Origin: Chrysochromulina tobinii
Taxonomy: Eukaryota; Haptophyta; Prymnesiales; Chrysochromulinaceae
NCBI GenBank assembly: GCA_001275005.1
Contig: JWZX01001549.1
Coordinates: forward strand, 1-33,299
Length of the DNA stretch: 33,299 bases
Direction: 5' to 3'
Shown here: piece by piece, positions 8,529-30,704 of the stretch
Position numbering within the stretch: position 1 is the stretch's first letter
How the letters are laid out: each line of letters begins with the position of its first letter
The notes under the pieces: model-generated
The model's database searches: none
What the model was told of the DNA's origin: nothing
Seen by the model: only the letters and a program-made list of their open reading frames with translations
Made by a program: the position numbers and the translations under genes

Positions 8529-8543
8529 GCTGATTAACTTTAC

Positions 8544-8557: not shown

Positions 8558-8616
8558 AAATCCAAAACTAGAAGACTTAAGGGCCGACGGCGGGCGCGGG
8601 CCGGAATTAAGACGGA

Positions 8617-10566: not shown

Positions 10567-10782
10567 GTCCTCCAAAGGGCCTCAAGGCCAACATCGGCCG
10601 CTCGTTCATCGTCATGGATGAGAGTACGCTCGAAGGATGCGCACAGCCGACCGAGTTCAAGAACCTGCTCTTCGGCCTGTGCTTCTTCATCGCGGCCATT
10701 CACGAGCGGCGTCAGTACGGCGCGATCGGCTGGAACATCGCGTACCAGTGGATGACCTCCGACCTCACTTACCGCGTATTGT
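10557..10782 (+). pseudogene. dynein heavy chain fragment, inverted relative to its neighbour
   Basis: The plus strand reads GPPKGLKANIGRSF, then TEFKNLLFGLCFF, HERRQYGAIGWNI and SDLTYRV. In a dynein heavy chain this segment immediately precedes the piece found at 10542-10109. Here it is on the opposite strand, so the two cannot be one transcript. It lies in the position expected for a minus-strand gene but is flipped, which suggests a local inversion of about 225 bases. The right edge abuts the stop codon (10789-10787) of the next gene. The open frame runs on past the similarity, but those codons are antisense to that gene. Confidence 0.85.
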
Positions 10783-10786
10783 ACGA

Positions 10787-15000: not shown

Positions 15001-15762
15001 GGCGAGCAGCCGCTTCACGTTCTCGAGCAGCTGCGTCAGGAACGGCGCGTTCGTCGTCACGTTAATGTCGACGGTGCCGTCGACGGTGCGCGCGTCGAGC
15101 TGCTGCGTGATGCAGCTCCGGAAGAGATTGTTCTGCAGCAGCTTGGTGATGGCGACGATGCGCGCATCGAGCTCAAGGAGCTGCGGCATCTCTACACCAT
15201 ACAGGCCAGGCTCGCGCGTCATGTTGTTGACCACGCGCCGGTATCCCGCGAGCGCCTCGGGCAGGTGCGTGCTCCGCTGCAGCGCATCGTCGAGCAGGAT
15301 GAGCACCCCGAGCAGGTCTCCGAGCGCATCAAAAGCGCGACGCATGGTGACGGCGCGGAAGGTGGCGGCGAAGAGCTTTTGTTGCGGCGAGTAGAGCGAC
15401 GCGAGCTGCCGGATTAGGTTCACTGCGAGCGCGTTCACGCGGATCGAGAACTGCTGCACCGCGAGCAGCAGTGGCAGCGCCGCGTTGGCGGCCACCTCGG
15501 GCCGCGGCGGCTCGGCGAGCGCGGCGGCGGCGACGCCCGCCTCGACAGCGGCCGACGCCATCGCCGGCTGGTCGGCGAGCAGCAGCAGCGCCGGCAGCAG
15601 GTGGTCCCGCGCTCGATCGCGCAGCGCCGTCGCCTCGTCGCACAGGTACGAGAAGACGATGATGACCTTGTTGAAGAGCTTGTTGTCGGTCTGCACGAGC
15701 GAGTTGCAGGCCACCTCCGAGCGCGGCGTCGCGTCGATGGCCACCGGACCGCACGAGCCCAT
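12028..15762 (-). CDS. WASHC4: WASH complex subunit SWIP (WASHC4)
   Basis: SWIP is a core subunit of the WASH complex, which activates Arp2/3 actin nucleation on endosomes. The match to animal SWIP runs over nearly the whole length. Landmarks are TDNKLFNKVIIVFSYLC near the start, CTFYNLTTVSLHDW, GLDVLQIMRNIH, KHLNTIGIRH, GIMNTAVNFTYQYLKRK, IGNAMGYVRM and FTDDGFAMGLAYLLKLL, ending SSYELEYELL-type and SARIFFRT. A single intron is supported. The donor GTGAGT at 14786 and acceptor GGGCAG at 14574 bound 213 bases (a multiple of three, with no stop) encoding unrelated proline-rich sequence. Removing it joins SFLA and TLPFKGSS through a split Arg codon and gives about 1173 residues. The N-terminus is probably incomplete. 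Similarity already begins at the annotated Met (15762), and roughly the first 60 residues of animal SWIP are missing. The codon is preceded by CATAG, a possible acceptor for an upstream exon. Confidence 0.93.
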   Translation of the reverse strand: MGSCGPVAIDATPRSEVACNSLVQTDNKLFNKVIIVFSYLCDEATALRDRARDHLLPALLLLADQPAMASAAVEAGVAAAALAEPPRPEVAANAALPLLLAVQQFSIRVNALAVNLIRQLASLYSPQQKLFAATFRAVTMRRAFDALGDLLGVLILLDDALQRSTHLPEALAGYRRVVNNMTREPGLYGVEMPQLLELDARIVAITKLLQNNLFRSCITQQLDARTVDGTVDINVTTNAPFLTQLLENVKRLLADLGTIIGQPTETQQRDEIVGLVALFCFHQYLHAPTKGVDKKTYTALWALGKRVPLTYLGGVAMWRPLSFLARECPLPPAPPQSPWPLSSRSPLDLLSISSPALPPALGTALKSPSGRTPTPPPPSRHPFAPHPLAPSPPRWAGTLPFKGSSMTVEAASKVEVEFLKLLDAELHKDVNTLRLALCKWLARFDSDLTAHANKQELLTTSTSLLIQAILLGSRLSQLLRSAVAGHFELGSPFPKKVLPSLLGALEVLKSFQVAVDRHGALTSLTAVHAGRTCAAQIRRLLLPVRAKLEAARRLDDAALDRLAAVTLMVQTLASPPDRTRLTIVQLARHVAQLKPLMREADHEELSDLLWKLQLLGSWQPTLAAATSCDFLFFCARDLLIPLVAIARELPTPRVLHTLLDAVRDVEPLLRRTAALGVHPTPYAPKPGAPGSGAPPGPINDAAPVGPSWITLLSAMLSSALDEEVLRKLALEIETDLRYAQHAAATLGSLTTPAPANVRALAARLGQPALPICMQAVLPVAHVGRYLDCTFYNLTTVSLHDWRTYAEMRAIAMQRYTFGMDGSGGGGCLDFVDPQLPAAACLPGQTMEEGLDVLQIMRNIHLFVRNFRYNLHNQIFVESGGAHEGKHLNTIGIRHVAASIRVHGAGIMNTAVNFTYQYLKRKLMVFSQFLFDDHIKSKLVREARAYRELAILTRQDRPESDRDGRTRARARYPYESAEKLAKDVRKLGDQHAPITVLDQFRILITEIGNAMGYVRMVRAGGVHFTGETAQCLPDLPGVQPLPLPPDADAAGGGAAPAAGVGNGAAGAVRGALALGAACAEAHGLAARFVDGMRSSYDEGANYFEILVNVFSSEIRSTKNDHLRHFFLIVPSLTIAYVDSMLVAKDKLQKKAREAYFTDDGFAMGLAYLLKLLEQNEQFETLYWWDTVQARYAAERTALQEAAGAASTGGRKEDANTLALKRIRSYELEYELLECAFCSARIFFRT
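14702..14737 (+). repeat. 11-base tandem repeat in the SWIP intron
   Basis: GAGGAGATCGA occurs three times in tandem (14702, 14713, 14724), then a partial copy. The whole intron (14574-14786) is strongly strand-asymmetric, G-rich on the plus strand and therefore C/T-rich in the transcript. Confidence 0.85.
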
Positions 15763-16123: not shown

Positions 16124-16124
16124 A
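16096..16124. repeat. CTTGA-type short tandem repeat
   Basis: The tract TTTGACTTGTCTTG followed by TCTTGACTTGACA abuts the first ATG of the ATM-type frame. Its first 14 bases are identical to part of the repeat at 817-852 upstream of tubulin. Relative to the SWIP gene it has the same orientation as that copy has to tubulin. Confidence 0.75.
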
Positions 16125-19100
16125 TGTCGCCCGCTCGCGCGGAAAGAGAGCGTCCCGGCCGCGACCGACGGCCTCGACGCACGCACATGTCGTCTCAGGC
16201 GGTGGCACGGCGCGCCAAGCTGGCGGCTGCCGACGAGGCCCAGTCGACGCTCCGCCAGCCCGCCGAGCTCAATCAGCTGGTCGATGAGCTCCAGAACCGG
16301 CTCAAGGAGGGCGGCAAGGAGGGCAAGGTCAAGTCGGCGAACGAGGCACTCAAGGAGCTCGTCGATCTGCTCGTGTCACACAAGTACGCGCGCGCGCACG
16401 GTGCCACGCTGCGCGACAACGCGAGCGCCAGCGCCGGCCGTGTGCCAACTTGGGACAGCGTCCTGAAGTGCACGCTCTTCTGTCTGAGCGTGTCCAAGAA
16501 GCTGCTCAAGGCGTTGGTTGAAAAGCTGCGCCTGCTCCTCGGCAAGGCACTCGAGGCCGGGCCGGGCGCGCTCCGCCCGACGAGTGAACTGCGCGTCTTC
16601 CTGTACGTGTGCCAGGAGCTGACCGACCGCGGCGGCACGGAGGCGCACGCGGCGCCGCGAGCTCCCGCGAAGAATGACGGCAAGTCGGCGCACCCCGATT
16701 GCATCGGCGTGCTCCTCCTCCTCGCGAGCGAGCGGCCGCAGCTGCTCGCACGCCTCTCGCCCCTTAGGCGCAAGCTGCTGCTCAACCAATGCATAGAATG
16801 GATCATTGGAGAGCCGCCTGGCGTCGATGGCGCTGGCGGCGGCGGCGGCGACGGCGCGGACAGCCGCTCAGACGGCATGGGCATAGGCGGTGTTGGTGCC
16901 AGCTCTAGCCGCGCGCCCGCGGGCGGCGGCGGCGGCATCGATCCGAGCGTGGTGGCGACGCCGCAGCTCCTGGTGCAGTATGCCCAGCTGCTCTCTCAAC
17001 TCGTAGGGGCGTGGGGCAGCGATATGGGGGTCCTCGAGAGCACTGGCGGTGGGCTGGAGGCGGGCGACGACGGCCCGTTCGCCCTGCTCACCGGCTTCAT
17101 GAACGACGTTTGCGAGAAGGAGCTGCCGTACCTACGCAAGATGGCCAACCAGCTTTGGTCCGCCACGCTGCATGCTATCCTGTGCCACGGCGCCAACGTG
17201 CTGCACGAGGTGGCGGCGTTTGGGCTGACCCCGTGCGTGCTCGAGCGCGTGCTGCGCGAGTTGCGCGAGGCCGATCGGGGTGGCGCGCTTGCCGAGACCC
17301 TCGCGAGCTTCGCGCGCTGCCAGCTCGCCTGCGTGCGCCTCTGCGGGCTCGCGCTGCCCGTGACGAGCGCACGCCAGCTCTCACATCTCGTCGAGCTCGA
17401 GCTCCGGTCTGCGAGCGCCTTCAAGCAGCCGGCGGCGCTGCTGAGCACCGCAGAGCTGAGCGAGGAGCGATGGCGTGCACGCTCGCTCCTACAGCTCATC
17501 GCCGACGTCCTCGCACTCCACCGGCCGCCGCCCAGCGCTGCCGCCGCGAGCGCCGCCGCGAGCGCCGCCGCGGGCGTGGCCGCCGCGGGCGCTACCGGGG
17601 CGGGGGCGTCCAAGCGGCAGCGCACCTCGGCGAGCGTGCCGCTGAGCACGCTGCTTCTCGAGGCGGTCCGTGCGCCCGGTAGCCCTGAGGAGTACGGGCG
17701 CTGGCTGCTCCTGATCGGATGCCTCGCTGAGCGCCATCCGGGCGCCCTCACGCCCTCAGTGCGCACGGCGCTCGTCGAGGCGCTCACGGCGGAGCTGCCG
17801 GTGGCGGACGGCTCGGTGGGTGGCGGCTGGGGGCGCCTGCCGCTCCTCGCGTGGGCGCTTGCCGGCCTCGCGCTGCTCGAGCCGCCGGGCGCAAGTGCGC
17901 CGCGCTGGGTGAGCCTCTGGCGCAGCTTACACGCACTCGTCGCTCTGTACGAGCCGGGCACGCGCACTCTCTACGCGGGCGGCGGCGACGGCGGCGCGGG
18001 TGGCGCGTCGGGCGGCGCAGGCGGCAGCGGCGGTAGTGCTGCTGGCGGCGCCGGCGGTGGTGGGGCGGCGGGAAGTACGGAGCGTCTGTGCTTCGTCGAC
18101 CTGGGCGCGCGCTGCTTGCGCGTGATGCTCGAGCGGGGACTTCTCCCTCCCTCTGAGGCCGCCGCCCAAGCCGCCTCCGTGATCCACTCATCGCCCCTCT
18201 TCGCGCCATTGGCCGTGCGCACCGCGGGAGATGCCACCGCGGCGGCGGCTGAGGGTCGCGCCTACCTTCGCTCGATGGTGGAGCTGAGCGCCGTGCTCGT
18301 CAGCGCAGCCGAGCGAGGCGTTCGCGCGGTAGACGAGGGAGCGGCGGCCGGTGGCGGCCGCGGCGGCGGCGGCGGCGGCGGGGCTTTCGACCGTCGGCGA
18401 CTGGTGCGCTGGCTGACGGAGCGCATGTACTGGGCGCCGGTGCAGCCAGCTTTCGAGGCCACATCTCCCTGGCGATGCGCGCTGCAGCTGCGTGCGACGC
18501 GGGCCGCGTGGGCAGCGGGCGCCGAGCACCTTCTGCTCCGGCGCGTCTGGTGTGCTGTCGTCACCGGTCATGGTGGCGGCGGCGCGGCGGTGGGCGGCAC
18601 GCTGCTCGGTGTGCCCGCTATCTCGCCCGGGGCGTGCGCTCTGCCCGTGACGTGGCTCGAGCGACCGTATAGCTCGGGGAGCGAAGGGTATGATCCTCTG
18701 CTCGGCGCCGCATCGGACGCGAGCTGGCGCCCCTCCGACCAGGCCGCCGGAGTGGCCGCCGCGCCGCCGTGCCCGCCGCGGCTGCTGCGCCGCCTCGTGC
18801 CGCTGGCAACGGCAGCGGGCGGCGGCCCGGTGGGCGCGGTGGACGAGGGCTGCGAGGAGGAAGAGGGCGAGTGGGACGAGGGCGGCGGTGGGAGCATCGA
18901 GGGTGTGCCGATGGGGCTGCTCCACCTCGAGGCCTTCCTACGCCACGTCGAGGCTCTCTCATCCAACCCCGCCCCCGCCGCCGCCGCCGGTTGCGCTGCG
19001 GATGGTGGCGGCGGCGGAGGCGGTGGCGGAGGCGGCATTGCGCTCGGGGCCCTCGGTGCGTACGCGAGCTCCGCGTCCCTGCTGGGTGTGGCTACGTACG

Positions 19101-22100
19101 AGGAGGAGCGGGCCGCGGGGCGCGTGAATGGGTCGCTCTCTCACGCGCCGGATGAAGGCACCGATGAGTGCGCCACAATGCCTGAGATCACGCTCGGGTT
19201 GCTCAAGGAGGCGAGCAAGCGGCTGGTGGCGGCTGCACCCTCGGAAGCCGCCTCGCCCGCCGACCCGGGGGCGCTGCGCACGATCATGCACGGGCTGCGT
19301 CTCGTCGAGTTCGCAGCGGCACTCATGCTCGCCACGGGGCCGCGACGCGCGCCAGAGGGCTGCATAAAGCTGCTGCAGAAGCAGCTGCGTAAGGTGGCGT
19401 CCTGGCTGCGGTGTACGCTGCCGCACGCGGGGCCTGATGCGTCACGAGCAGAGATGCTTGCCAAGGTTAAGGGGTGGGCCCGCGCCTCGCGCACGCTCCT
19501 CGCGTTACGCTCATGCCTCGCCATGTTCGCGGCACTCGCGGCTGACACTCGCGGCGGCACGCAGCGCGGATGGCATGTGGTGGTGGCGCCCTCATGGCCC
19601 GAACCTCTCTACGTCGCCATGGCCTCTGAACCTCAGACCCTCGTCCACGGCGTCAAGCTGCTCTGCATCGCGCGACAGGCGCAGCAAGCGGCGCGAGCTG
19701 AGGCCGCCGCCGCGGGCGGCGGCGGCGGCGGCGGCGGCATCGGCATCGGCGGCACAACAGCGGCTGCGGAGGCGATGGACGTTGACGAGTTCGAGCTGCA
19801 AGTGCCGAGCGAAGCTGCGAACGCGAGCGCCACCGCCTCTGGGGCTGCTACCTCGACTTTGCGCGAGGAGGGCGGCGGTGGCGGCGCCACTAGCGCGGCA
19901 GAAGAGGCGGAGGTGGGCGCGGCGCTGCATGCCATCCTCAGCTGCCTCGACCTGTGGGCGCTCGGCTTCGGCTCGGTCAGCGAGCGAGTACTCGTGGCGC
20001 TCCCAGCCGCGCTCGAGGGGCTCAGTGCGGCCGCGCTGCGCACTAAGCTGCTCGCGCTTCGCACGCTAGCCACATGCATGCGGGCCACCCCCACGCTCAC
20101 CCAAGCTCGGCGTGCGTGGCCTGCCGCGGTTTCGCCGAACCCAGCCACCGCGCCCGCCGTCGGGGGGCTTCTCGGGGATATGGACGTGGGCGGCAGCACG
20201 GTGGTGCGCAACCTGCCCGCGCCCGTGGCGGCTCTGCTCGAACCTTGGCTCTTGGTGGCTGACTCAGCCCTCTTCGGCGACGTGACACGTCGGCTGAGTC
20301 ACGCGAAGAAGCACGCAGCCAAGCTTGAGCTGCCGAAGCCCGAGTGTAGGGAACAGACAGCGGATGTGGAGGCTAAGATCGCCGCGGCCGCCGCCTCGTG
20401 CGACGGGGCCCTCCGGCGCGCGCTAGCGGTGCTCTGCCGCTTTGCACGCGCCGCGCCTGCCACGCTGCCGGCAGGCGGGAGTGCGTGCGAGCTCCGCGCG
20501 TACAACAAGCTTTGGACGATGTCGCTCGGGGTGGCAAAGGAGCGTGGCGACTTTCGCACCATCGTGCGCGACCGTAAGCGCATGCTGCCGCTCACGCCGG
20601 CGGCGCGGCTCGCGCTCGTCGAGGCGCTGCATGCACACGTTGAGATGATGGAGCGGCTGCATGCAAGTGCCAAGGCCGCGGCGATGGAACGGCTGCATGC
20701 GAGCGCTTTGGCCGCGAGCAGTCGCCGTCCTAGCGAATCCACACCGCTGCTGCTCGACGGGCAGACAGTTGATGACGTGGGCGAGAAGTATGAGGAAGAC
20801 CTCTTCGACGCGCTGTATGACACGCAGTGGGCGGTGCGCCAGTGGGTCGTGCGAGCGCTCGGCGTGCTCGCCCCCACGTTCGAGCCCGAGGATCATCGAA
20901 CCTTCCTGCTTCCCAAGGCACTTGGCCCCCTCTTCGGCGTGCCCGAGAGCGCCCCGGCCGAGGCGAGCTTTGGCGTGCCGTGCTTCGCCTTCGTCGGCCT
21001 CAAGCGCGGCGGCGGCGCCAACGGCCTGCTCGCGAGCCCGTGGGGGGGCCACGGGCTTGCGGGTGCGGGCGGCGGCGGTGGTGGGGCCCTGGGCGGGGTG
21101 CCGACGAGCGCGCACGTGCCCTCGCCGTACGTGTCGCCGGCTTTTGAGGTACGTCTGACGGCGCTGCACGCCCTCGCCGCCCTCGGAGCTAGCTCGGCGA
21201 GCTGCACCGACCAGTCGCTGCTCCTCCTCCTGCTCGCGCACGGGCCCGACCCCGCCCGCGCCGCTGCCGCCGCCGCCGCTGCCGCCGCCGCCGCTGCGGC
21301 TGCCGGCAACGAGACGCCGCCGCCACGCGCAGCCCTTCGTCTAGCGGCGGACGCGGCTCTGCGCAGCATGGGGGCGGCAAGTGGGCTGGCACCGTGGCGG
21401 ATGCTGCGCCAACGGGGTCAGCAGCTGCTCGCTCTCTGGCTCCAGTTAAAGCTGCCGCTGCAGCGACTGCCGTGCACTCTCTTCAAGGCCACGCCAGCGC
21501 ACGGCACGGCCGCTGCCCTCACCTCGAGCGTCGGCGCCGCCAACGCGCCCTCCTCCTCGGGAGCCTCCGTCGCTGCTGAGGCGGATGCGAGCGCCGATCG
21601 CGACCTCGCCGCCTTTGTCGCTTCAAGCCGCATCCCTCTCGCGACAGCGGCAGCGATGGCCTCCAACGGCGAGGTCCTCACGACCGCCGCACGTGCGCTC
21701 GGGCTCGCGGGTGGTGCACCCGACCTTTTGCTCGAGGCGCTGCCGCAGGTGCTCGCTCGCCTGCTTCCCATGAAGAATGGGGCGGCTGACGAGCGCCAGA
21801 CGTACACCTTCTCGCTCGACTTTGTATGTAGCATCCTCGCACCACAGCCGCTGCACGCGTGCGCGCAGCCGCAGATGAGCGCTTTGCTCTCTTCCATCGT
21901 CCTGTGCGCCTCGGCCGAGCGCCCCCCAAGCCCACCGCAGCGCACCGTGGCCGAGATTATCGAGGTGCTCATCGCGCCGCCCGACCCGCGCGCCGCCGTC
22001 TCTCGACGACCCCTCGTCGAGTCGCTGCGTTCGCTGCCACCGGTGGCGATGCATGCCCTTGTCCTCACGGTTCGTGGCGCGATCGCGGCGGGCGAGGCGT

Positions 22101-25100
22101 CGCTCGGAGCCCTCGAGGTACTGCTGAGCGAAGCCCTCCTCTCGCCTCAGCAGCTGGGTGCCGGATGCACGCCCCACTTGCTGCAGGCTGGGCTGCTCGC
22201 CCCCGCCCACGCCGCCCTCAACCGCACCACCCTCGCACTCTGCGTGCCGCCTGCCGCCGCCGCCGCCGGCAGCAGCGCCGCGGCCGACCCGGCCGACGCG
22301 GCTGCCGCCTCAGAGAACGCGAAGGTGGATGAGCTGTCGCACGCGTGCGAGCTGCTGCGTCGGCTGCACGCGCGGCTGGGCGCCTTGGCGTCTGTGCGGG
22401 CGGCGCTGCTACCCGCGCTGCTCCGAGCGCTCGTGCCTCTGGCGGCACGCTCGGCTGCGGCCCAGGCGACGCTCGGTGAGGTGCTCCAGCACGATGTCTT
22501 CGCGACAGCCGTGGGCGGGGCCCAAAACCAAGGGGTAGGCTTGGGTGCGCGCGAGGGAGCGAGCGGCAGCCTGGGGGCCAGCCTCGAGGCCTCGTGGACC
22601 GACCCGATCGGATCGTCGGATCGGTTGCATGCCGCACTCGCCAAGCTGCCCCCGTACGAGCTGGTCACCTCGGCCAGCACGCGTGGGCTGCAGGAGCTGC
22701 AGGCGCGCCTGCTGGTCGCTCGAGCCCGCGCGGCGGACGAGGCTTCGAGCGAACGCCTTTCGGCTGCGGCGCAGCTGCTGGCATGCGAGGCAGGCGCACC
22801 CGCCCACGCCCTTGGAGGCTACCCCGCCGTCCGATTGCAAACCGCACGGCCGGTTGCCGAGGCGGCGGCGGCGGGCGGGTGCGGCGAGGCGGTGGCGGGT
22901 GCGGCGGCAGGCATGGTGCTCAGCGGCGTGAGCGAGCGCGGCGCACCTCGCTCGGAGCTCGAAGCGCGGGCTGCAGTGACCAAGGCAATCCTCATCCTCG
23001 GCTCGCCTGAAGCGCTCGAGTGCCCGACGCTCAGCGCGTGGCTCGAGGGTGGAGACGAGGTCGCTGATGAGGGCTACGGCGCCCTCGACCTGCGTGCTCT
23101 ACGGGCCGGCAGCGCGCGCGCGGCGGCGGCAGCAAGGCGCGCCGAGGCTTCGAGAGCGGCGGCTGCCCTCGATGACGAGAGCGCTCTGCACGACGGTGGC
23201 GAGGCATGGTGCCCGTGGAACGACCGAGCGCCGCTGCAGGGCATGGGGCCAGCTCGTGGGGGCCTTGACTCCCAGTCGAGGCTACAGTCCCTTAGGCGAG
23301 CACGCCGCTCGCCTATGGAGCGCACGCGGCGCTGGCTGCTGCGGCTTGCCTCAGCGCCGGGCCTCTCGTCGGCCTTACGAGAGCTCATCAGCCAAGCGCT
23401 CAGCCTGTGTGCCACCCTACCGCCGCCGCGTGCGCTTCTCGAGCCGCTCGCCTCGGACGTGCCACTTCCGCCCTCACAGCTCACCGACTGCGCGGACGAG
23501 GAGGAGGCACTCGGAGCGGCAAGGTCGGCCGCAGAGGCCGCGGGCGCAGCTGACGGGGAGGGCAAGGAGGAGGAGGAGGAGGAGGCCGCCGGCCATGCCC
23601 GGCTGCTGCGCCAGCTCCACGCGGTACTCATCTCGCCGGATGCGCCGCCGCGCCTGTGCGCCCTCGCCGCCCAGAGCCTGTGCCGAGCCTTCGAGTCTGA
23701 CGCGGCGCGCCCGGCGGCCCTGCGCGCGCTCGAGCAGCTGCATCGACAGCCAGCCGCAGCGGCCGCCTACCACCATCTGCTCCCGTATGCCGCGCTTGAG
23801 CAGCTGCGTGCCTCGTTGGCGTCGAGCGGCGCGGCAGATGGCACCGTGAGCGGCGGCGAGAGCGGCGCGAGCAATGCGGCGATGGAGGTTGATGCGGCTG
23901 CGTGGCTCGAGGCGCCGCCGCCCATTGCGTGCGCGCTGGTCTGGGCAATGGGCTCGACGGCGGAGACGCCTGCGTACGATCACGCCGCGTGGCTCTGCGC
24001 AGTAGTCAGTCCTCTGCTCGCCGCCTCAACTGACCCGCTCCTCGCCGGATGCACACCACTCGCGGCCGCCGCGCCCCGATTCGCGGCTTCGATGCTTGAG
24101 GCGGCCGTGCAAGACGTGGCGAGGCAGCCTGCTCACGCGCATGCGCTCGCGAACGCCGTGCACGCTGCCCTCGACCCTCCGGGCCTTGGCGCGATGGCAG
24201 GCGCGAGCGCATGCCCCCCTGCCAAGGCGGCCGCCCTGCTCCGCGTGATCACCTCTCTCCTCCGAAACTCTATACACGCGCCCGCCGCACCCGCCGCCGC
24301 CTCGGCAGCGCTCGAGGCCTTCTGGAGATTGCTCTGCCTCGGTCGGCTGGCCGAGGTGGCAGCGGACCATCAGATGGACGCGACGGCTCTCCTCCTACTC
24401 GAAGCCTCGAAGGCGATCGCCACCGCTACCAGCCCCAGCCACGCCGTCCCTCCTGCTGCCGCCGCCCCTAGCGCCGCGCACGAGGCGCGTGCGCTCGCGG
24501 TGCTGCGGCGTGTGCTGCCCCGCCTCGCGATGCCCGACATGGCGTTGGGGCTGCCGGCAATGGCGACGGAGGCGGCGCTCTCGGCGGGCGCTAGCGGTGG
24601 CGTGGGCGGATTGGTCGGGCTGGGCGGGTTGGTGGGCGCGCGTGGTCCGTGGCTCGTCTCGTCACTCGAACTGAGCCTGGCGGACGTGGGGCTGCGCGCC
24701 CAGCACGGCGCTCAGCACGAGCGGCTACCTGCCGCCCTCGACAGCCTCCATCGGCTGGGCTGCTATGCGCTTGTGCGCGCCGTCAGCTCGGCACGGCTGC
24801 CAATGGCGCCGCCCGCGTTGAGGGTGGCACCGGCGCCGCAGCCTGCGGGTTGGGGTGTGGGCGATTGGCAATCGGTGGCGGAGGGGCAGGCGGAGATGGC
24901 ATGGCGCCTTGGCGAGTGGACGGACGTGCGCGTGCCCACAGGGTCGGGCGTTGCTTTTGACGACGAGGAGATGTGGGAGGCGTCGCTGCCGGGTCTACTC
25001 GACGGCGGCGGCGGCGGCGGCGGCGTGCGCGCGGGTGAGGGCGGCGCCTGCCATGGCGCCTTGGCGAGCGCGCTGCGTTTGCTAGGCCGTCGCGAGGCAG

Positions 25101-28100
25101 GTTCCTTCGCTGCACTCAAACGCACCGTTGGCGGTGCGCAGCAGTCGCTGCTGGCACAGATGGTCAGCCTGCCCCCCGAGGCGAGCGGAGCGCTCGAGGG
25201 AGCGCTCCGACAGCTCCGGCTGTGCGGCACGCTGCGCGAGGGCGCGGGTGGCCTCGCATCCGAGGTGAGCATGACCGATGGGATGAGCACGCCCTGGCTG
25301 CTCCCTTTCGCGCTGGTGGCCGCCGCCCGGCAAGCCCTTGGCGGCGGCACATCGACGCAGGGGATGGCCGACACGCTCGACAGCATGGCCACCGCGGAAA
25401 GCGCCGGCGGGTACGGCGGGTACGGCGGCGGCTTTGGTGGCGCCTCGGAACGTGCGGCACGCGACGAGTGGCTGCAGTGGCGGCGCAAGCGGCTGTCGCA
25501 GCAGCTGGCGGTGCTGCCGCGCGGCGCTCCACTCGGCGAATACGAGCCGCTCGTGGCGCTGCACGTGGCGATGCTGCGGCACATGCAGCCGCACGGCTCG
25601 CGTGCCGAGCAACTTGAGCTTCTAGTCAGCGCCGGCCAGCGAGCGCGCGCCGACGGCCACCAAGCTGGCGCGCATGCCCTGCTTCGGCGGGCGGCTGAGC
25701 TCGCCTCGGCCATCGGCGGGAGCGGCAGCGCCGTTGGCGCTCCGCTCGCGTCGCAAGCGCCGTACGCATCCTGCTCGCAGCAGCTTGAGTCGGAGGGCGA
25801 GGGCTCGGTGCAAGGGGCGACGACTCAGAGTGCGCTGCGCTGGCTGCCGGCGACGTGGGCGGGCCGTTGGGAGCACGCGCTCCTGCTGTGGGACGCGGGT
25901 AGTGACGGGCGCACCGACGCCCTGCTGGTGGCCAAGCGGTTGCGTGACGAGCTTCAGGCGGCCATGGACGCAGCCGCTGGGGTGGGCGGACTGTCCTCAG
26001 CACCGAAGGCGAGCGGCGCGGCGGCAGCGGGGGGTACCGGCGGCCGGCCTCTTTCGTCGAGACACGCGACGCTCCACGTGCAGCTGCTTGCAACGCTCGG
26101 AGGCTGGATGGACGCTCTGCGGTGCGAGGGGCTGGGTGCGGTCCAAAAAGAGCTCGACACGGCGGTCTACCTATGTGATGAGCTTGGGGTGCCCGATGAG
26201 AGTGGCGCAGTGGCGGACGCACTTCTCGGGCTGGGCAGCTTCCACGAGCGACAGTTTGGCGCGTTGCAGCGTCAAGCAGATTCGTCCACCTTTGCCAAGC
26301 TCGTGTCAGTGCACGCACGCACCAGGGTTGAGCTGCGACGCGTGCGCAATGAGCTGCTCACGTTGACCGACACGGCAACCAAGGCGATCGCTCACCGTCG
26401 TAACAAGCTCGAGAATCACGCACGCGAGCTGCGTTTCGCGCTTGACGCGCTCGAGAAGGACTCGCTCGCCACCGTCGACCGGCGTTCCGAGCATCTCCTC
26501 GGCGCGATGGAGAACTACCTTCTGTGCCTGCGCCGCGCGCCTGAGGGCTCGTCGGCCTCCCGCGCGGCCGCCACGGCCGTCTGTCGCCTCTGGATGCGCA
26601 ACCGCGAGGTCCAGCCGCTCTCAGAGAAGGTGCTTGCCTTCTTCGGTGCTCATGGGCAAGGTGCCGCGCCCGCGCTCTCCCGCCCCTTTTTGCCGCTTGC
26701 TTTCCAGCTGTGCGCGCGGCTGAGCACTGCGGCGGACGCGGCGGACGCAATCGACCCACTCTCATGTGAGGAGAGCTTCTCGCAGCCGTCACAGGCATAC
26801 GATCTGCTCGACGAGGGCTCGTACGCGGCGCCCTCAACAGCGGGTGATGTGGGCGTGGCTGAGGCCGAGAAGCCCAACGATGTGCTGGCGGCGGCTGCGT
26901 TCCAGAGAGCACTGCGCACGATGCTCCTCCAGCTGAGCGAGCACGACGTCGATCGCGTCATCATCCACCAACTCATCGTGGCCGCCGAGCCTGCCGGCGC
27001 CGCTGCCGGTACTCACGATGTAGGCGCCTCACAGCAAGCGGCGGCGTCGCTGCTCCAGAAGCTGCGTGAGCGTCGACCGGCCGAGGTGGAGGCATCCATC
27101 GCCCTCGTCGGTGCCCTCCGCCGCCTCGCTTGCTGTCAGGCTCGCGCCGGCGGATGCGGCGACGAGACCCCAGCCAGCCCGCGCGCATCGTACGTTGCCA
27201 TCGCAGACGCGCTCGGCGCGGTAGGCGCCGTGGCGGGTGGCGGATCTGCACCCGACCTGAGCCGCCTGCATGACCACCTCGACATGCGCCGCGTGCCACT
27301 ACGTGTACCCCTCACTCCGGCTGGTAGCGAGGGCGGCGAGCCGGCCCTGATGGTGCGCTACCTGCCGCACTTTATACCTGTTGCCTCGGGCCGGCCGCAT
27401 GCACTCACGGGCGGGGACGGGCCAACGGCGCCGTCTTGGGCGCGCTCCAAGCTCGTCTGGTGCGAAGACGAGGCGGGCGTGCGCCATGCCCAACTGCTGC
27501 GCGCGCGCCCCGCCGGCTCTCTCGATCCTCGGCGGGATGCGCTCGGTTGGCAGGTGTTCGAGGAGCTCTCTCGGCGGCTGGAGGCGGATCCTGCCGCGCG
27601 AGCCCGTGCGCTTCGGCTACGCGCCCCGCGAGTGCTCCCCCTCGCCCCGTCCGCTGGGTTGTATGAGTGGCGCTCGCACTGCCGCTCGATGCACGCGTAT
27701 CTGGCCGACGAGCACGCACGGGCCTATGCCGAGGGGCGCGATCGGATGAAGCTGGTCGAATGCGAAGCAGCCATGCGCGCCGCGCGTGCCGCCGACGCTT
27801 TTAATGCCGCCGCCGCCGACAATGTCGTAGTCGACGACGACGCTTACGCGCAGCCTGCACTCGGCCGCCGCCCCTTGACCGTCGACGCGACGGGTTGCGG
27901 GGGCGCGGGCGCGGACGGCGCCGGCGCCGAGGCGGGCCCAGCGGTGCTTGCGGCATGGACCCGCGTGACGGCGGCCCTGACGCCACAGCTACATCGCTTC
28001 CTGCTCGGCAGCTCTCCCTCGGCTGAGGTTTGGCTCGCGCGGCGTGCGGCGCTCACGCGCTCGGCGGCGGGGGCGTCGGTAGGCGGCTGGCTGCTAGGGC

Positions 28101-28669
28101 TCGGCGATCGCGCACCGCACCGGATGCTCCTCGACAGTGCCACCTCTGAGCTCGTCCACGTTCACATGCAGCCCCTCCTCCTCCAACGAGCTGCGTGCGA
28201 TGGCGCAGACAGTGGGGCGGCTCAGGGTGGCGGCGGCGTGAGCGAGGGCGCGCGCGCGCCGCCGCTGATGCCCTTTCGGCTGACACGCGAGCTCGTGGAC
28301 GCTTTCGGGCTCGGCGGCGTCGAGGGTCCCTTCCGAGCGTCCGCTGATGCGACCCTCCGGCTGGCGCAGGGTGAGGCGTGCACGGCGGCGATCCTCACAC
28401 TCCTCGAGGCCTTCGTTGACGAGCCGATGCGCGGATGGGCCGCCGCCTCCGAGGGCGCCGCCGTGCCGTGGGCCCACGACATGGCTGCCGCCCGTGCCGC
28501 GCGGCTCGATGCTGAGGTGGCGGTGCTCCACGCGCAGCGCCGGCTGGGCGGCAAGCAGGGAGCGGCCGCTCCACTGAGCGTCGAGAGCCGCGTGCGTCAG
28601 CTCATCAGCCTCGCCACCAAGGAGGGGACGCTCGCTGCGCAGCCTATTGGCTGGCAGCCGTGGCTGTGA
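16124..28669 (+). CDS. giant ATM/Tel1-type PIKK with a degenerate kinase active site
   Basis: ATM/Tel1 kinases signal DNA double-strand breaks. This single 4181-residue frame has no intron. The N-terminus (from about residue 49, with W110 in PTWDSVLK) resembles the ATM TAN region. A very long helical-repeat body follows, interrupted by poly-Gly and poly-Ala insertions. The FAT region (about 2760-3640) aligns with ATM through ERLPAALDSLHRLG, EMAWRLGEWTD, LGGWMDAL and AMENYLLCLRR. The kinase fold is clear at PRRDALGWQVF, SVGGWLLGLGDR, SELVHVHM, MPFRLTRELVDAFG and GVEGPF. The end, SVESRVRQLI to GWQPWL, is an ATM-type FATC. The active site is altered. The catalytic loop GDRHxxN reads GDRAPHR (D3995 kept, His to Ala3997, Asn to Arg4000). 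The metal-binding Asp of the DLG motif, 19 residues after D3995 as in human ATM, is His4014. The ATP-binding Lys region reads QLLRAR (Arg3793). This predicts a pseudokinase. ATG 16187 (MSSQAVARR) is an alternative start. Confidence 0.92.
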   Translation: MSPARAERERPGRDRRPRRTHMSSQAVARRAKLAAADEAQSTLRQPAELNQLVDELQNRLKEGGKEGKVKSANEALKELVDLLVSHKYARAHGATLRDNASASAGRVPTWDSVLKCTLFCLSVSKKLLKALVEKLRLLLGKALEAGPGALRPTSELRVFLYVCQELTDRGGTEAHAAPRAPAKNDGKSAHPDCIGVLLLLASERPQLLARLSPLRRKLLLNQCIEWIIGEPPGVDGAGGGGGDGADSRSDGMGIGGVGASSSRAPAGGGGGIDPSVVATPQLLVQYAQLLSQLVGAWGSDMGVLESTGGGLEAGDDGPFALLTGFMNDVCEKELPYLRKMANQLWSATLHAILCHGANVLHEVAAFGLTPCVLERVLRELREADRGGALAETLASFARCQLACVRLCGLALPVTSARQLSHLVELELRSASAFKQPAALLSTAELSEERWRARSLLQLIADVLALHRPPPSAAAASAAASAAAGVAAAGATGAGASKRQRTSASVPLSTLLLEAVRAPGSPEEYGRWLLLIGCLAERHPGALTPSVRTALVEALTAELPVADGSVGGGWGRLPLLAWALAGLALLEPPGASAPRWVSLWRSLHALVALYEPGTRTLYAGGGDGGAGGASGGAGGSGGSAAGGAGGGGAAGSTERLCFVDLGARCLRVMLERGLLPPSEAAAQAASVIHSSPLFAPLAVRTAGDATAAAAEGRAYLRSMVELSAVLVSAAERGVRAVDEGAAAGGGRGGGGGGGAFDRRRLVRWLTERMYWAPVQPAFEATSPWRCALQLRATRAAWAAGAEHLLLRRVWCAVVTGHGGGGAAVGGTLLGVPAISPGACALPVTWLERPYSSGSEGYDPLLGAASDASWRPSDQAAGVAAAPPCPPRLLRRLVPLATAAGGGPVGAVDEGCEEEEGEWDEGGGGSIEGVPMGLLHLEAFLRHVEALSSNPAPAAAAGCAADGGGGGGGGGGGIALGALGAYASSASLLGVATYEEERAAGRVNGSLSHAPDEGTDECATMPEITLGLLKEASKRLVAAAPSEAASPADPGALRTIMHGLRLVEFAAALMLATGPRRAPEGCIKLLQKQLRKVASWLRCTLPHAGPDASRAEMLAKVKGWARASRTLLALRSCLAMFAALAADTRGGTQRGWHVVVAPSWPEPLYVAMASEPQTLVHGVKLLCIARQAQQAARAEAAAAGGGGGGGGIGIGGTTAAAEAMDVDEFELQVPSEAANASATASGAATSTLREEGGGGGATSAAEEAEVGAALHAILSCLDLWALGFGSVSERVLVALPAALEGLSAAALRTKLLALRTLATCMRATPTLTQARRAWPAAVSPNPATAPAVGGLLGDMDVGGSTVVRNLPAPVAALLEPWLLVADSALFGDVTRRLSHAKKHAAKLELPKPECREQTADVEAKIAAAAASCDGALRRALAVLCRFARAAPATLPAGGSACELRAYNKLWTMSLGVAKERGDFRTIVRDRKRMLPLTPAARLALVEALHAHVEMMERLHASAKAAAMERLHASALAASSRRPSESTPLLLDGQTVDDVGEKYEEDLFDALYDTQWAVRQWVVRALGVLAPTFEPEDHRTFLLPKALGPLFGVPESAPAEASFGVPCFAFVGLKRGGGANGLLASPWGGHGLAGAGGGGGGALGGVPTSAHVPSPYVSPAFEVRLTALHALAALGASSASCTDQSLLLLLLAHGPDPARAAAAAAAAAAAAAAAGNETPPPRAALRLAADAALRSMGAASGLAPWRMLRQRGQQLLALWLQLKLPLQRLPCTLFKATPAHGTAAALTSSVGAANAPSSSGASVAAEADASADRDLAAFVASSRIPLATAAAMASNGEVLTTAARALGLAGGAPDLLLEALPQVLARLLPMKNGAADERQTYTFSLDFVCSILAPQPLHACAQPQMSALLSSIVLCASAERPPSPPQRTVAEIIEVLIAPPDPRAAVSRRPLVESLRSLPPVAMHALVLTVRGAIAAGEASLGALEVLLSEALLSPQQLGAGCTPHLLQAGLLAPAHAALNRTTLALCVPPAAAAAGSSAAADPADAAAASENAKVDELSHACELLRRLHARLGALASVRAALLPALLRALVPLAARSAAAQATLGEVLQHDVFATAVGGAQNQGVGLGAREGASGSLGASLEASWTDPIGSSDRLHAALAKLPPYELVTSASTRGLQELQARLLVARARAADEASSERLSAAAQLLACEAGAPAHALGGYPAVRLQTARPVAEAAAAGGCGEAVAGAAAGMVLSGVSERGAPRSELEARAAVTKAILILGSPEALECPTLSAWLEGGDEVADEGYGALDLRALRAGSARAAAAARRAEASRAAAALDDESALHDGGEAWCPWNDRAPLQGMGPARGGLDSQSRLQSLRRARRSPMERTRRWLLRLASAPGLSSALRELISQALSLCATLPPPRALLEPLASDVPLPPSQLTDCADEEEALGAARSAAEAAGAADGEGKEEEEEEAAGHARLLRQLHAVLISPDAPPRLCALAAQSLCRAFESDAARPAALRALEQLHRQPAAAAAYHHLLPYAALEQLRASLASSGAADGTVSGGESGASNAAMEVDAAAWLEAPPPIACALVWAMGSTAETPAYDHAAWLCAVVSPLLAASTDPLLAGCTPLAAAAPRFAASMLEAAVQDVARQPAHAHALANAVHAALDPPGLGAMAGASACPPAKAAALLRVITSLLRNSIHAPAAPAAASAALEAFWRLLCLGRLAEVAADHQMDATALLLLEASKAIATATSPSHAVPPAAAAPSAAHEARALAVLRRVLPRLAMPDMALGLPAMATEAALSAGASGGVGGLVGLGGLVGARGPWLVSSLELSLADVGLRAQHGAQHERLPAALDSLHRLGCYALVRAVSSARLPMAPPALRVAPAPQPAGWGVGDWQSVAEGQAEMAWRLGEWTDVRVPTGSGVAFDDEEMWEASLPGLLDGGGGGGGVRAGEGGACHGALASALRLLGRREAGSFAALKRTVGGAQQSLLAQMVSLPPEASGALEGALRQLRLCGTLREGAGGLASEVSMTDGMSTPWLLPFALVAAARQALGGGTSTQGMADTLDSMATAESAGGYGGYGGGFGGASERAARDEWLQWRRKRLSQQLAVLPRGAPLGEYEPLVALHVAMLRHMQPHGSRAEQLELLVSAGQRARADGHQAGAHALLRRAAELASAIGGSGSAVGAPLASQAPYASCSQQLESEGEGSVQGATTQSALRWLPATWAGRWEHALLLWDAGSDGRTDALLVAKRLRDELQAAMDAAAGVGGLSSAPKASGAAAAGGTGGRPLSSRHATLHVQLLATLGGWMDALRCEGLGAVQKELDTAVYLCDELGVPDESGAVADALLGLGSFHERQFGALQRQADSSTFAKLVSVHARTRVELRRVRNELLTLTDTATKAIAHRRNKLENHARELRFALDALEKDSLATVDRRSEHLLGAMENYLLCLRRAPEGSSASRAAATAVCRLWMRNREVQPLSEKVLAFFGAHGQGAAPALSRPFLPLAFQLCARLSTAADAADAIDPLSCEESFSQPSQAYDLLDEGSYAAPSTAGDVGVAEAEKPNDVLAAAAFQRALRTMLLQLSEHDVDRVIIHQLIVAAEPAGAAAGTHDVGASQQAAASLLQKLRERRPAEVEASIALVGALRRLACCQARAGGCGDETPASPRASYVAIADALGAVGAVAGGGSAPDLSRLHDHLDMRRVPLRVPLTPAGSEGGEPALMVRYLPHFIPVASGRPHALTGGDGPTAPSWARSKLVWCEDEAGVRHAQLLRARPAGSLDPRRDALGWQVFEELSRRLEADPAARARALRLRAPRVLPLAPSAGLYEWRSHCRSMHAYLADEHARAYAEGRDRMKLVECEAAMRAARAADAFNAAAADNVVVDDDAYAQPALGRRPLTVDATGCGGAGADGAGAEAGPAVLAAWTRVTAALTPQLHRFLLGSSPSAEVWLARRAALTRSAAGASVGGWLLGLGDRAPHRMLLDSATSELVHVHMQPLLLQRAACDGADSGAAQGGGGVSEGARAPPLMPFRLTRELVDAFGLGGVEGPFRASADATLRLAQGEACTAAILTLLEAFVDEPMRGWAAASEGAAVPWAHDMAAARAARLDAEVAVLHAQRRLGGKQGAAAPLSVESRVRQLISLATKEGTLAAQPIGWQPWL
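20648..20719 (+). repeat. 36-base in-frame duplication within the ATM-type gene
   Basis: Two 12-codon units (20648-20683, 20684-20719) each encode MERLHASAxAA. They are adjacent and in frame in the helical-repeat body. Confidence 0.85.
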
Positions 28670-29009
28670 GGATGTGTAGGGGAGGACTCAAAGGATCCGT
28701 CGTCGGCAGGTCGTGGCCGCGGCTGCGGGGATCGACTGGCAGGAGCTCGGCTGAGTTCCGCTGGTGAGCAACACGTACAACTGGTCAACGGGAGCACTGT
28801 TCATAAACAGTCGTCGTTGCATGCGTCCATCTCGAACGCGTACCTTTAAACGGTGGTCTAGCGCGGGTTAGGGTCAGTGAGGTTCTCGGTGGAGTAATTA
28901 GAAATTTACTTTTGTACTGATGGCGATTGCATGCACGATGCAGAACGGGGGGTTTTCAATTTTGGGTCGAGTTTGGTTTCCGTTACGTCTCGTCTTGTCA
29001 CGTTTTTCC
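28670..29009. other. intergenic region, 340 bases
   Basis: This lies between the ATM-type stop and the preferred SAM-protein start. It turns AT-richer from about 28770 and should contain the ATM-type 3' end and the SAM-gene promoter. A GGGTTAGGGTC stretch near 28865 is telomere-like but is a single copy. No gene is seen. Confidence 0.5.
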
Positions 29010-30704
29010 ATGGGCTCCATTGCTGATGCTTTCGCCACCGCTGATTTCGCCAATGCCGCCGCGGCTGTGGGAGCGGCGGCTGAGGGCGCAGCCGGTGACG
29101 GAAAGAAGTCGCTGGCGAGCCTAAGCCTGCACGCCTTCCTCGAACATTTCCGCCTCGAAGGCCTCACAGAGGCTCTCGTCGACATCGGGATTACGCGGCC
29201 GATGGACACGCGCATCCTGACGCGCGCGGACCTTCGCTTGCTTGGAATCGCCCATGCACACATGGCAAACAGCGTGTGGCATCGGCTGCAGTACGCGCTG
29301 CAGAGGACCTTTGGCGCAGACTACGATTGTGCGGCGGCGGCAGTGGAGGCGGAGGCGGAGGTGGTGAGCGCGTCCGACAAGCGCACGCTGGACAAGGCTT
29401 CCGAATGGAGTACCACCTCCTCCTTGCGCGGCCGTGGCAGCTTCGAGCGTGGGGCTAGCAATGCCGCCGCTGATTACGCACGTGCTCGCACGTATGGCTC
29501 GTATGATCGCCAGTGCGAGCTCGAGCTGCGCCGCTTACTACAGGGGGGGGCTAGGCGGCGTAACGACGTTTCCGCGCTCACATCGCCGGGGCGGAAGGGT
29601 GCACGCAGCTTCATGCTCAGCCAGGGCAGCAGCCGCTCAGACGCGCCGACACGATCATCGAGGCGTCTGAGGGGCGAGTCACCCTCCTCGTCACTGCCGC
29701 CACCTTCGCCGCCTGCGGTTATATCGGGCACGGCGCGCGTGCATGCTCGGCTCCTCGAGCGCGCAGGAGGGGGCGCGACGAATGCGGTGCACACCCGGGG
29801 GAGCGCCCGTGACGGCGCCAATGGTTACGACGCCTCGCTCACCGCCCGCCCGCATACTATCGCTCACGAAACCGCCAGCGGGCCGCGACCACAAGCCTTG
29901 AAGCCTGTCGAACGCTTCCTGTTGCGCCGGTTAGAGGGTCCGAGGCCTAGCCGAAAGGAGGCGGCACATGCCCCAGCGTGCGGTGCACCGCCCCACCGCC
30001 AGCCTGCCACCACCATGACCGTCGCGGCCATCCTGACCGCCGGCACCCATGCGACGAGCAGTACGATACCCCCCCGTTCCCCCAGGGGCGCCCCGCCTCC
30101 GAGCGCACAAGCGAGCATCAATGGAATACTGCCGCTCAACTCATGTCCTCCTTCCTCTGCAGCCTCGGCTTGTGGAGCTTCAGCCTACGACACCTCCGAA
30201 CATGGGGAACATGGCGCGTGGGGCGGCTGTTCTGGTGGCTACAGCTACAGCAGTGGCTGCGGTGGTGGCTGCCATGGCGCTGGCGCCACCCAGGTGCAGC
30301 TGCCCTTCCTCGTGTGCAACTCGGCCGAGGTTTGGGGCCCAATTCAGCGAGGCTCACCCACCGCCATAGCGCGTGTGCACCCAGGCCACGCCCGCGCTAA
30401 ATCGCCGAGCTTGGCAGTGCGACGATGCTGTGCGCCTGTGGTTCCGTCCGTGGAGCTGCTCGACGGGGGTGAGGTGGATGAGGCGTGGGGTCACGTTGAC
30501 GAAGCGTTCGATAGCCTCGCCGGATGGGATCACGAAAGCAGTGACCCGGCCATTGCCTCTGCGATACAGGAGGAGACAGCCCGGTCGCCACGCTCGCCAC
30601 GTTGTAACACGAGGGATGTGCGCTCTTCCCAGCGCCGGCGCTACCCAATCAAAAACCTCCACGCTCGAGCCCCAACGGTGCTGTTCGCGACGCCCGCATT
30701 CTGA
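29010..30704 (+). CDS. SAM-domain protein, otherwise uncharacterised
   Basis: SAM domains are small helical bundles that mediate protein oligomerisation or RNA binding. In this 564-residue product a SAM-like fold spans about residues 37-97 (LHAFLEHFRLEGLTEAL, then DIGITR, LTRADLRLLGI and WHRLQYALQ). The rest is low-complexity: a Ser/Arg-rich region with several SP or TP sites, proline-rich stretches, and a Gly/Ser/Cys/Tyr-rich segment (GGCSGGYSYSSGCGGGC). This suggests a largely disordered scaffold. I chose ATG 29010 (MGSIADAF). The upstream in-frame ATG at 28920 would add residues from AT-richer DNA that look like leader sequence. The distal half is composition-poor, so an unrecognised intron there cannot be excluded. 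Confidence 0.7.
   Translation: MGSIADAFATADFANAAAAVGAAAEGAAGDGKKSLASLSLHAFLEHFRLEGLTEALVDIGITRPMDTRILTRADLRLLGIAHAHMANSVWHRLQYALQRTFGADYDCAAAAVEAEAEVVSASDKRTLDKASEWSTTSSLRGRGSFERGASNAAADYARARTYGSYDRQCELELRRLLQGGARRRNDVSALTSPGRKGARSFMLSQGSSRSDAPTRSSRRLRGESPSSSLPPPSPPAVISGTARVHARLLERAGGGATNAVHTRGSARDGANGYDASLTARPHTIAHETASGPRPQALKPVERFLLRRLEGPRPSRKEAAHAPACGAPPHRQPATTMTVAAILTAGTHATSSTIPPRSPRGAPPPSAQASINGILPLNSCPPSSAASACGASAYDTSEHGEHGAWGGCSGGYSYSSGCGGGCHGAGATQVQLPFLVCNSAEVWGPIQRGSPTAIARVHPGHARAKSPSLAVRRCCAPVVPSVELLDGGEVDEAWGHVDEAFDSLAGWDHESSDPAIASAIQEETARSPRSPRCNTRDVRSSQRRRYPIKNLHARAPTVLFATPAF

What the first reader, a model, noticed from the sequence alone, without database searches (positions are those of the whole stretch)
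27450..28669. ATM-family protein with a dismantled kinase active site
The C-terminal lobe and FATC align closely with ATM (FRLTRELVDAFG, GVEGPF, SVESRVRQLI, GWQPWL). Three sets of catalytic residues are changed at correctly spaced positions. GDRHxxN becomes GDRAPHR. The metal-binding Asp 19 residues later is His4014. The ATP-contacting Lys position is Arg3793. The frame itself is intact over 12.5 kb, so it is under constraint. That argues for a retained scaffold, comparable to TRRAP/Tra1 (the known PIKK pseudokinase) but on the ATM branch. I know of no described ATM-branch pseudokinase. Either this lineage lost ATM activity or it carries a second, active paralogue.
Basis: partly seen in the sequence, partly recalled or inferred. 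Interest (0 to 1): 0.87.

Follow-up and report, generated by a model that had tools for sequence, protein, structure and literature searches.

The report
Dead-enzyme twin of the ATM kinase
Beside an ATM gene with an intact active site, this algal genome carries a second giant ATM-type gene whose key catalytic residues are missing in all nine related sequences found, so its protein is predicted to be inactive and likely works as a scaffold; that would make it a second kind of inactive member in a kinase family where, in the papers seen, only TRRAP is described as one.

Summary
Window 16124-28669 (+) is one uninterrupted 4,181-codon frame ending in a PIKK kinase domain and FATC. Where ATM has His2872, Asn2875, Asp2889 and Gly2891 it has Ala, Arg, His and Gln. 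Eight relatives (48-93% identical) show the same loss: 9 of 9 lack all four residues, while 111 of 111 proteins from a canonical-ATM search keep them. This is a conserved pseudokinase clade. It is ATM-branch: a FAT-only profile matches ATM and Tel1 and no other PIKK in the PDB and aligns to an ATM FAT set at 99.9%; the kinase tree agrees, but its AU test alone excludes no other placement. The same assembly has a separate ATM with an intact active site (C1983) and its own TRRAP, the PIKK called sole pseudokinase in papers seen. Most likely the protein is a non-catalytic scaffold; partners and function are untested.

The parts
16124..28669 (+). Whole gene: single uninterrupted frame, 4,181 codons, ATM-branch PIKK pseudokinase
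   Evidence: relatives P0004 (93% identical, 3,863 aa), P0005, P0006
25544..27358 (+). FAT region (residues 3141-3745), profile matches ATM/Tel1 FAT
   Evidence: profile A5 vs PDB: ATM E 2e-8, tel1 3.5e-6, no other PIKK up to E 10; hhalign vs ATM FAT set 99.9%, E 4e-32 over 402 columns; AlphaFold helical array plus kinase, best match human ATM
27353..28666 (+). Pseudokinase domain with FATC (residues 3744-4181)
27500..27502 (+). Arg3793 at the ATP alpha-phosphate Lys position (ATM Lys2717)
   Evidence: Arg in 3, Lys in 5, 1 not covered, of 9; role of Lys2717 from PMC8828054
28106..28108 (+). Asp3995, catalytic-base position (ATM Asp2870), kept here, Glu in 7 of 9 clade members
28112..28114 (+). 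Ala3997 at the catalytic His position (ATM His2872)
   Evidence: Ala 7, Glu 1, Thr 1 of 9
28121..28123 (+). Arg4000 at the Mg-binding Asn position (ATM Asn2875)
   Evidence: Arg 8, Ser 1 of 9; Asn2875 as Mg ligand in PMC8828054
28163..28171 (+). His4014-Met-Gln4016 in place of the Asp-Leu-Gly metal-binding motif (ATM Asp2889, Gly2891)
   Evidence: Asp position His 3, Gly 4, Asn 1, Ser 1 of 9; Gly position Gln 9 of 9
28571..28666 (+). FATC domain (residues 4150-4181)
   Evidence: 72% and 69% identical to P0005 and P0006

Best explanation
The window encodes a 4,181-residue ATM-branch PIKK whose active-site His, Mg-binding Asn and metal-binding Asp are replaced in it and in all eight relatives found, so it is predicted to be catalytically dead and likely serves as a non-catalytic scaffold beside a separate ATM with an intact active site in the same genome. 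Shown: the intact frame, the kinase-FATC architecture, the ATM-type FAT region, the clade-wide loss of catalytic residues, the high conservation of segment 4046-4110 and FATC, and the intact ATM active site on another contig. Inferred: no phosphotransfer; folding by the TTT/Hsp90 PIKK route (a TELO2 match is present; the route is known for TRRAP, PMC8926402); and a working role in which the solenoid-FAT-kinase-FATC body acts as a docking platform, as in Tra1/TRRAP. By descent from ATM it would most plausibly dock at DNA ends or chromatin or pair with ATM, but nothing here tests its partners.
For: Catalytic positions: 9 of 9 clade members lack the His2872, Asn2875, Asp2889 and Gly2891 equivalents; 111 of 111 proteins from the canonical-ATM search keep all of them. 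Relatives at 93% and roughly 50% identity keep the long architecture. Identity to P0005/P0006 is 71/65% in segment 4046-4110 and 72/69% in FATC, against 29-59% in the other segments measured, except 69% for P0005 at 4111-4149. FAT-only profile: ATM and Tel1 and no other PIKK; hhalign 99.9% to the ATM FAT set, 4.3% or less to mTOR, DNA-PKcs, TRRAP and SMG1. Kinase tree (45 sequences): clade 100/100, and ATM plus clade separated from ATR, mTOR, DNA-PKcs and TRRAP with 99.9/99. Predicted FAT-kinase fold best matches human ATM. An intact-site ATM lies on C1983. TRRAP is present separately (C1727; C226, by eye), so this is not the organism's TRRAP.
Against: No expression, interaction or enzyme data. 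The Lys is kept in 5 of 8 members and an acidic residue (Asp or Glu) at the catalytic-base position in 9 of 9, so residual nucleotide binding or unusual chemistry is not excluded. The AU test on the kinase domain does not reject placement with ATR (p 0.051), TRRAP (0.29), mTOR (0.23) or DNA-PKcs (0.15). The hhalign contrast is weaker than it looks for DNA-PKcs and SMG1: these were single sequences, and even the ATM set aligned to them at only 1.5% and 4.0% (but to mTOR at 98.0% and TRRAP at 94.6%). The ATM N-terminal TAN motif was not detected. With FAT plus kinase the clade falls outside all sampled ATMs with modest support (81.8/87), so when it split from ATM is unresolved. The own ATM has a frame change upstream of its kinase domain in this assembly. 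Scaffold function is an analogy.
Confidence: 0.72

Rival explanations
1. Natural kinase-dead ATM acting as a regulator of active ATM: it would form mixed dimers with, or compete for MRN sites against, the intact ATM on C1983 and so damp or gate DNA-damage signalling.
For: The ATM-type FAT region is kept; both genes sit in one assembly and an MRE11 match is present. Engineered kinase-dead ATM (mouse D2880A, N2885K) is worse than no ATM and is proposed to block repair physically at damage sites (PMC6990542, PMC4957979 passages); the natural Asn-to-Arg change sits at the position of N2885 (mapped through the mouse D2880A = human D2870A correspondence).
Against: No test of co-assembly; the clade is highly diverged (stem 1.64 substitutions per site), which makes a shared dimer interface less likely; interface residues were not compared.
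Confidence: 0.17
2. It keeps an enzymatic activity by an altered mechanism, using Asp or Glu at the catalytic-base position and new basic residues in the cleft.
For: Asp or Glu at the catalytic-base position in 9 of 9, Lys kept in 5 of 8, Arg at the Asn position in 8 of 9.
Against: Both Mg ligands of ATM (Asn2875, Asp2889; PMC8828054) are gone in 9 of 9, and the Asp position varies among His, Gly, Asn and Ser, which suggests no retained metal site.
Confidence: 0.06
3. The gene is a decaying duplicate, or the lesion is an assembly or splicing artefact.
For: Catalytic residues are lost; the protein has many Ala/Gly-rich stretches.
Against: 4,181 codons without a stop, long relatives at 93% and about 50% identity from other contigs, conservation concentrated in segment 4046-4110 and FATC, and no canonical motif in any frame of the window.
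Confidence: 0.03
4. It is a diverged ATR (no ATR was found in the held assembly) or another PIKK, not an ATM derivative.
For: No ATR gene was found; the C-terminal profile A2 scores ATR (121 bits) close to ATM (129); AU p for a grouping with ATR is 0.051; ATR was represented by two sequences in the tree and by none in the FAT comparison.
Against: The FAT-only profile matches ATM and Tel1 and no ATR chain up to E 10, although ATR chains are in that library (ATR rows).
Confidence: 0.04

Closest known systems
ATM / Tel1
   Same: FAT region, kinase fold and FATC; FAT-only profile and best predicted-fold matches are ATM
   Different: All nine members lack the catalytic His, the Mg-binding Asn, the metal-binding Asp and its Gly; 4,181 aa against 3,056 for human ATM; TAN not detected
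TRRAP / Tra1, described as the sole PIKK pseudokinase (PMC8926402 passages, PMC8625110 abstract start)
   Same: Giant PIKK with the kinase fold but without the catalytic set; basic residues at the cleft (Tra1 cleft arginines, PMC5982823 abstract)
   Different: Sequence relation is to ATM: TRRAP scores 20 bits against 129 for ATM with profile A2 and 0.1% in the FAT comparison; the organism has its own TRRAP
Engineered kinase-dead ATM (mouse D2880A/N2885K; D2899A)
   Same: Substitutions fall at the same Asn and metal-binding Asp positions
   Different: Natural, shared by a clade, and present beside an intact-site ATM rather than replacing it
ATR, mTOR, SMG1, DNA-PKcs
   Same: PIKK kinase domain and FATC
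   Different: Catalytic residues kept in the rows aligned (ATR, mTOR, DNA-PKcs; SMG1 not aligned); the FAT-only profile does not match them

Membership tests
PIKK superfamily | PI3K/PI4K-type kinase domain at the C terminus | tested here: met
   PF00454 71.8 to 78.9 bits, cut-off 27.1
PIKK superfamily | FATC at the extreme C terminus | tested here: met
   PF02260 29.5 bits for the domain alone; 24.9 in the whole protein, just under 25.3
PIKK superfamily | FAT domain before the kinase | tested here: met
PIKK superfamily | N-terminal HEAT solenoid | tested here: inconclusive
   one HEAT match at 1560-1585, 18.5 bits, below the 23.5 cut-off; residues 1-3140 were not folded
ATM/Tel1 branch (descent) | FAT region closest to ATM/Tel1 | tested here: met
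ATM/Tel1 branch (descent) | kinase domain groups with ATM | tested here: inconclusive
   ATM plus clade split 99.9/99 but the AU test rejects no alternative at 0.05; no SMG1 in the tree
ATM/Tel1 branch (descent) | N-terminal TAN motif | tested here: inconclusive
   no TAN match up to E 10 in residues 22-1159 (Pfam) and no PDB match for 22-259; no TAN over cut-off anywhere in the assembly, so the test has little power
ATM kinase (active enzyme) | Asp-His-Asn and Asp-Leu-Gly catalytic set | tested here: not met
   9 of 9 lack His, Asn, Asp and Gly; 111 of 111 comparison proteins have them
TRRAP/Tra1 | sequence relation to TRRAP closer than to other PIKKs | tested here: not met
   profile A2: TRRAP 20 bits, ATM 129; FAT comparison 0.1%; the kinase-only AU test does not exclude it (p 0.29)
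TRRAP/Tra1 | incorporation into SAGA or NuA4 | not testable with these tools
   needs biochemistry
Pseudokinase | one or more essential catalytic residues missing in a retained kinase fold | tested here: met
   residues; fold is a prediction:
Pseudokinase | no phosphotransfer in an assay | not testable with these tools

The most novel reading that the evidence does not exclude
A second, independent PIKK pseudokinase lineage: algae that keep a working ATM have turned an ATM relative into a permanent, conserved kinase-dead partner that gates DNA-damage signalling, that is, they have tamed what is lethal when engineered in mice.
Probability: 0.22. Interest if true: 0.92.

Novelty: new variant of a known kind. 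Interest (0 to 1): 0.76.

Why it matters
TRRAP/Tra1 is described as the sole pseudokinase of the PIKK family (PMC8926402). A conserved ATM-branch pseudokinase would show that a giant DNA-damage kinase can be kept purely for its body. It would also bring a natural counterpart to kinase-dead ATM, which in mice is more harmful than having no ATM (PMC6990542), and make the question of ATM's structural, kinase-independent role testable in an organism that has both versions.

Tried and rejected
Rejected: (1) that the lineage lost ATM activity: an intact-site ATM is on C1983. (2) TRRAP orthologue: TRRAP is separate and scores far below ATM. (3) DNA-PKcs, suggested by the 4,181-aa length: DNA-PKcs is on C1959 and scores lowest of the active PIKKs with profile A2. 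(4) Diverged ATR: not favoured by the FAT profile, though the kinase domain alone leaves it open. (5) Artefact or decay: relatives from other contigs.

Led nowhere: a viral-contig scan found no relative. UME and TAN searches of the assembly gave nothing over cut-off. The eukaryotic SSU rRNA search did not complete, so the organism was not identified by rRNA. DNA of the relatives was not available, so no dN/dS. The distribution of the clade is under-sampled: length limits of the protein search (about 241-766 aa for the domain query, 2,300-7,300 for the full length) skip mid-length proteins, and only the candidates sharing most words were scored (1,693,992). The comparison set of 111 came from a canonical-ATM query (7,994 candidates scored) and so leans towards intact enzymes; two of the 111 (P0123, P0124) look like mTOR. 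The kinase tree used 24 of these 111 as ATM rows, two ATRs and no SMG1; the tree used 28 of them and 8 of the 9 clade members (P0013 left out). In one search, DNA-PKcs, TRRAP and SMG1 were one sequence each and ATR had none. TRRAP rows did not appear in the structure lists shown, which shows nothing.

Literature: no described ATM-branch pseudokinase was met in searches (open-licence PMC only); for most hits only listings and abstract starts were seen. Passages found by search terms were read of PMC6990542, PMC8828054, PMC4580454, PMC3019232, PMC3218828, PMC5709506, PMC8926402 and PMC4957979; abstract and outline of PMC5982823; abstract start of PMC8625110; the title of Elias-Villalobos 2019 only in a reference list.

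Full report
WHAT IS THERE. The window holds one uninterrupted frame from ATG 16124 to TGA 28669 on the plus strand, 4,181 codons. The C-terminal part is a PIKK kinase domain with FATC: PF00454 71.8 bits in the whole protein, 78.9 for the domain alone, cut-off 27.1; FATC 24.9 and 29.5 bits, cut-off 25.3. Pfam's FAT, TAN and UME models give no match (whole protein up to E 0.1; pieces up to E 10). Against the roles given for human ATM in PMC8828054 (passages: Lys2717 contacts the alpha phosphate, Asp2870 is the base, His2872 is thought to stabilise the transition state, Asn2875 and Asp2889 bind Mg), the window has Arg3793, Asp3995, Ala3997, Arg4000 and His4014, and Gln4016 where ATM has Gly. None of the canonical motifs searched occurs in any of the six frames of the window.

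A CONSERVED CLADE. A search with residues 3740-4181 returned three close relatives: P0004 (93% identical, 3,863 aa), P0005 (52%, 2,327 aa) and P0006 (48%, 3,059 aa), besides two mTOR-like proteins. A search with the aligned domains returned five proteins, P0009-P0013, all of this kind (50-60% identical). Aligned to ATM, nine of nine lack the His (Ala 7, Glu 1, Thr 1), the Asn (Arg 8, Ser 1), the metal-binding Asp (Gly 4, His 3, Asn 1, Ser 1) and the following Gly (Gln 9). The catalytic-base position is Glu in 7 and Asp in 2. The Lys is Arg in 3, Lys in 5 and not covered in 1. All 111 proteins returned by a search with the organism's own canonical ATM (two of them look like mTOR) keep Asp, His, Asn, Asp and Gly. 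That set leans towards intact enzymes because of the query, but the contrast is complete. The metal-binding position varies within the clade, whereas segment 4046-4110 of the C-lobe (71% and 65% identity to P0005 and P0006) and FATC (72% and 69%) are the best-conserved parts of the protein; the other segments measured lie at 29-59%, except 69% for P0005 at 4111-4149. This is what one expects of a domain kept for its shape and not for catalysis.

WHICH BRANCH. With the FAT region alone, which is independent of the active site, a five-sequence profile matched ATM (E 2e-8) and tel1 (E 3.5e-6) among all PDB chains; of the six rows up to E 10 the one other was a TSG101 chain at E 4.2. Profile-profile comparison of FAT regions gave 99.9% and E 4e-32 over 402 columns to an ATM set of 17, and 4.3, 0.3, 0.1 and 1.0% to mTOR (four sequences), DNA-PKcs, TRRAP and SMG1 (one each). 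As controls in the same call, ATM aligned to mTOR at 98.0% and to TRRAP at 94.6%, but to DNA-PKcs and SMG1 at only 1.5 and 4.0%, so the negative results for the last two are weak; no ATR set was available. In the kinase-domain tree of 45 sequences the nine form one clade (100/100), and ATM plus this clade is separated from ATR, mTOR, DNA-PKcs and TRRAP with 99.9/99; the place within ATM is unresolved. Against this, the AU test on the kinase domain alone rejects no other placement at 0.05 (ATR 0.051, DNA-PKcs 0.15, mTOR 0.23, TRRAP 0.29), and single-sequence and profile scores put ATR close behind Tel1 and ATM, even ahead of ATM in the single-sequence search (68.6 against 64.7 bits). With FAT and kinase together the clade falls outside all 28 sampled ATMs with modest support (81.8/87), the only outgroup being mTOR. 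Whether it is an early ATM-side paralogue or a fast-evolving lineage duplicate is open.

THE REST OF THE PIKK SET. The same assembly (53.15 Mb, 2,253 contigs) has an ATM with all catalytic residues on C1983 (354 bits to human ATM; residues), DNA-PKcs on C1959 (281 bits), TRRAP on C1727 (71 bits) with its FAT part on C226 (by eye), mTOR on C1821 (groups with mTOR proteins at 100/100) and an SMG1-like protein at the end of C916 (by eye). So the window gene is an extra, not the only ATM and not the TRRAP. No separate ATR was found. Matches to MRE11 and TELO2 models are present. The own ATM shows a frame change near L015:3316-3323, upstream of its kinase domain; a 99% identical protein from another source, P0014, crosses it without a break.

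ORGANISM. It is a photosynthetic eukaryote: 58 light-harvesting-protein matches. Seven chains of PDB entry 9vfj head the list for one of these proteins, but without a single stretch passing alone; the best single-stretch matches are fucoxanthin chlorophyll a/c proteins. P0014, 99% identical to its ATM, groups with the ATM of Pavlovales sp. CCMP2436 in the FAT-kinase tree (92.4/96), though in the kinase-only tree that Pavlovales protein fell beside the pseudokinase clade instead (85.8/61). The assembly is of the size of that of the haptophyte Chrysochromulina tobin (59 Mb, 3,472 contigs, 63.4% GC; PMC4580454 passages), which is only a hint. A haptophyte is likely, the species unproven.

HOW IT PROBABLY WORKS. 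Loss of both Mg ligands in every member makes phosphotransfer unlikely (inference from the ATM structure). A retained PIKK body without catalysis has one precedent in the papers seen, Tra1/TRRAP, an adaptor that needs the TTT chaperone (PMC8625110 abstract start; PMC8926402 passages); mutating three arginines in the Tra1 cleft impairs nuclear import and complex assembly (PMC5982823 abstract). By analogy the window protein is most likely a scaffold. Its descent from ATM suggests DNA damage or chromatin, and a role as partner or competitor of active ATM is a serious rival: kinase-dead ATM in mice (D2880A, N2885K) is more damaging than absence of ATM and is thought to stay on the lesion (PMC6990542, PMC4957979 passages), and the clade's Asn-to-Arg change is at that Asn. 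None of this was tested.

NOVELTY. Papers seen state that TRRAP is the sole PIKK pseudokinase. Searches of the held open-licence library listed no ATM-branch pseudokinase; the passages seen of kinome papers on Phytophthora and Giardia and of a 312-genome survey describe none. I rate it a new variant of a known kind: a pseudo-PIKK on a branch where none was met in these searches.

Noticed in passing
L015:3316-3323 (G000 contig C1983): The own canonical ATM changes reading frame upstream of its kinase domain, while a 99% identical protein from another source (P0014) runs through without a break. A sequencing slip or a real lesion; described only.
   Followed up: partly
whole assembly G000: No separate ATR gene was found with the human ATR kinase domain, UME or the PI3K model. 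The assembly may be incomplete.
   Followed up: partly
window 12028-15762 (-): WASH complex subunit 4/7 gene (PF14744, PF14745, PF14746), divergent from the pseudokinase with 361 bp between the two starts.
   Followed up: no
window 28920-30704 (+): 594-codon frame downstream without a Pfam match up to E 0.1; its start looks SAM-like by eye only.
   Followed up: no
window 4940-11420 (+): Frames with TMEM43, DnaJ, five C2H2 zinc fingers and a dynein heavy-chain lid domain.
   Followed up: no
G000 contigs C226 and C1727: TRRAP appears split over two contigs, FAT part (by eye) and kinase-FATC part.
   Followed up: partly
residues 3804 and 4000 of the window protein: Two new arginines are fixed around the cleft: Arg3804 in all 8 members that cover it (Gln in 21 and Gly in 5 of the 26 ATM rows) and Arg4000 in 8 of 9. 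Reminiscent of the cleft arginines of Tra1; could mark a new ligand site.
   Followed up: no
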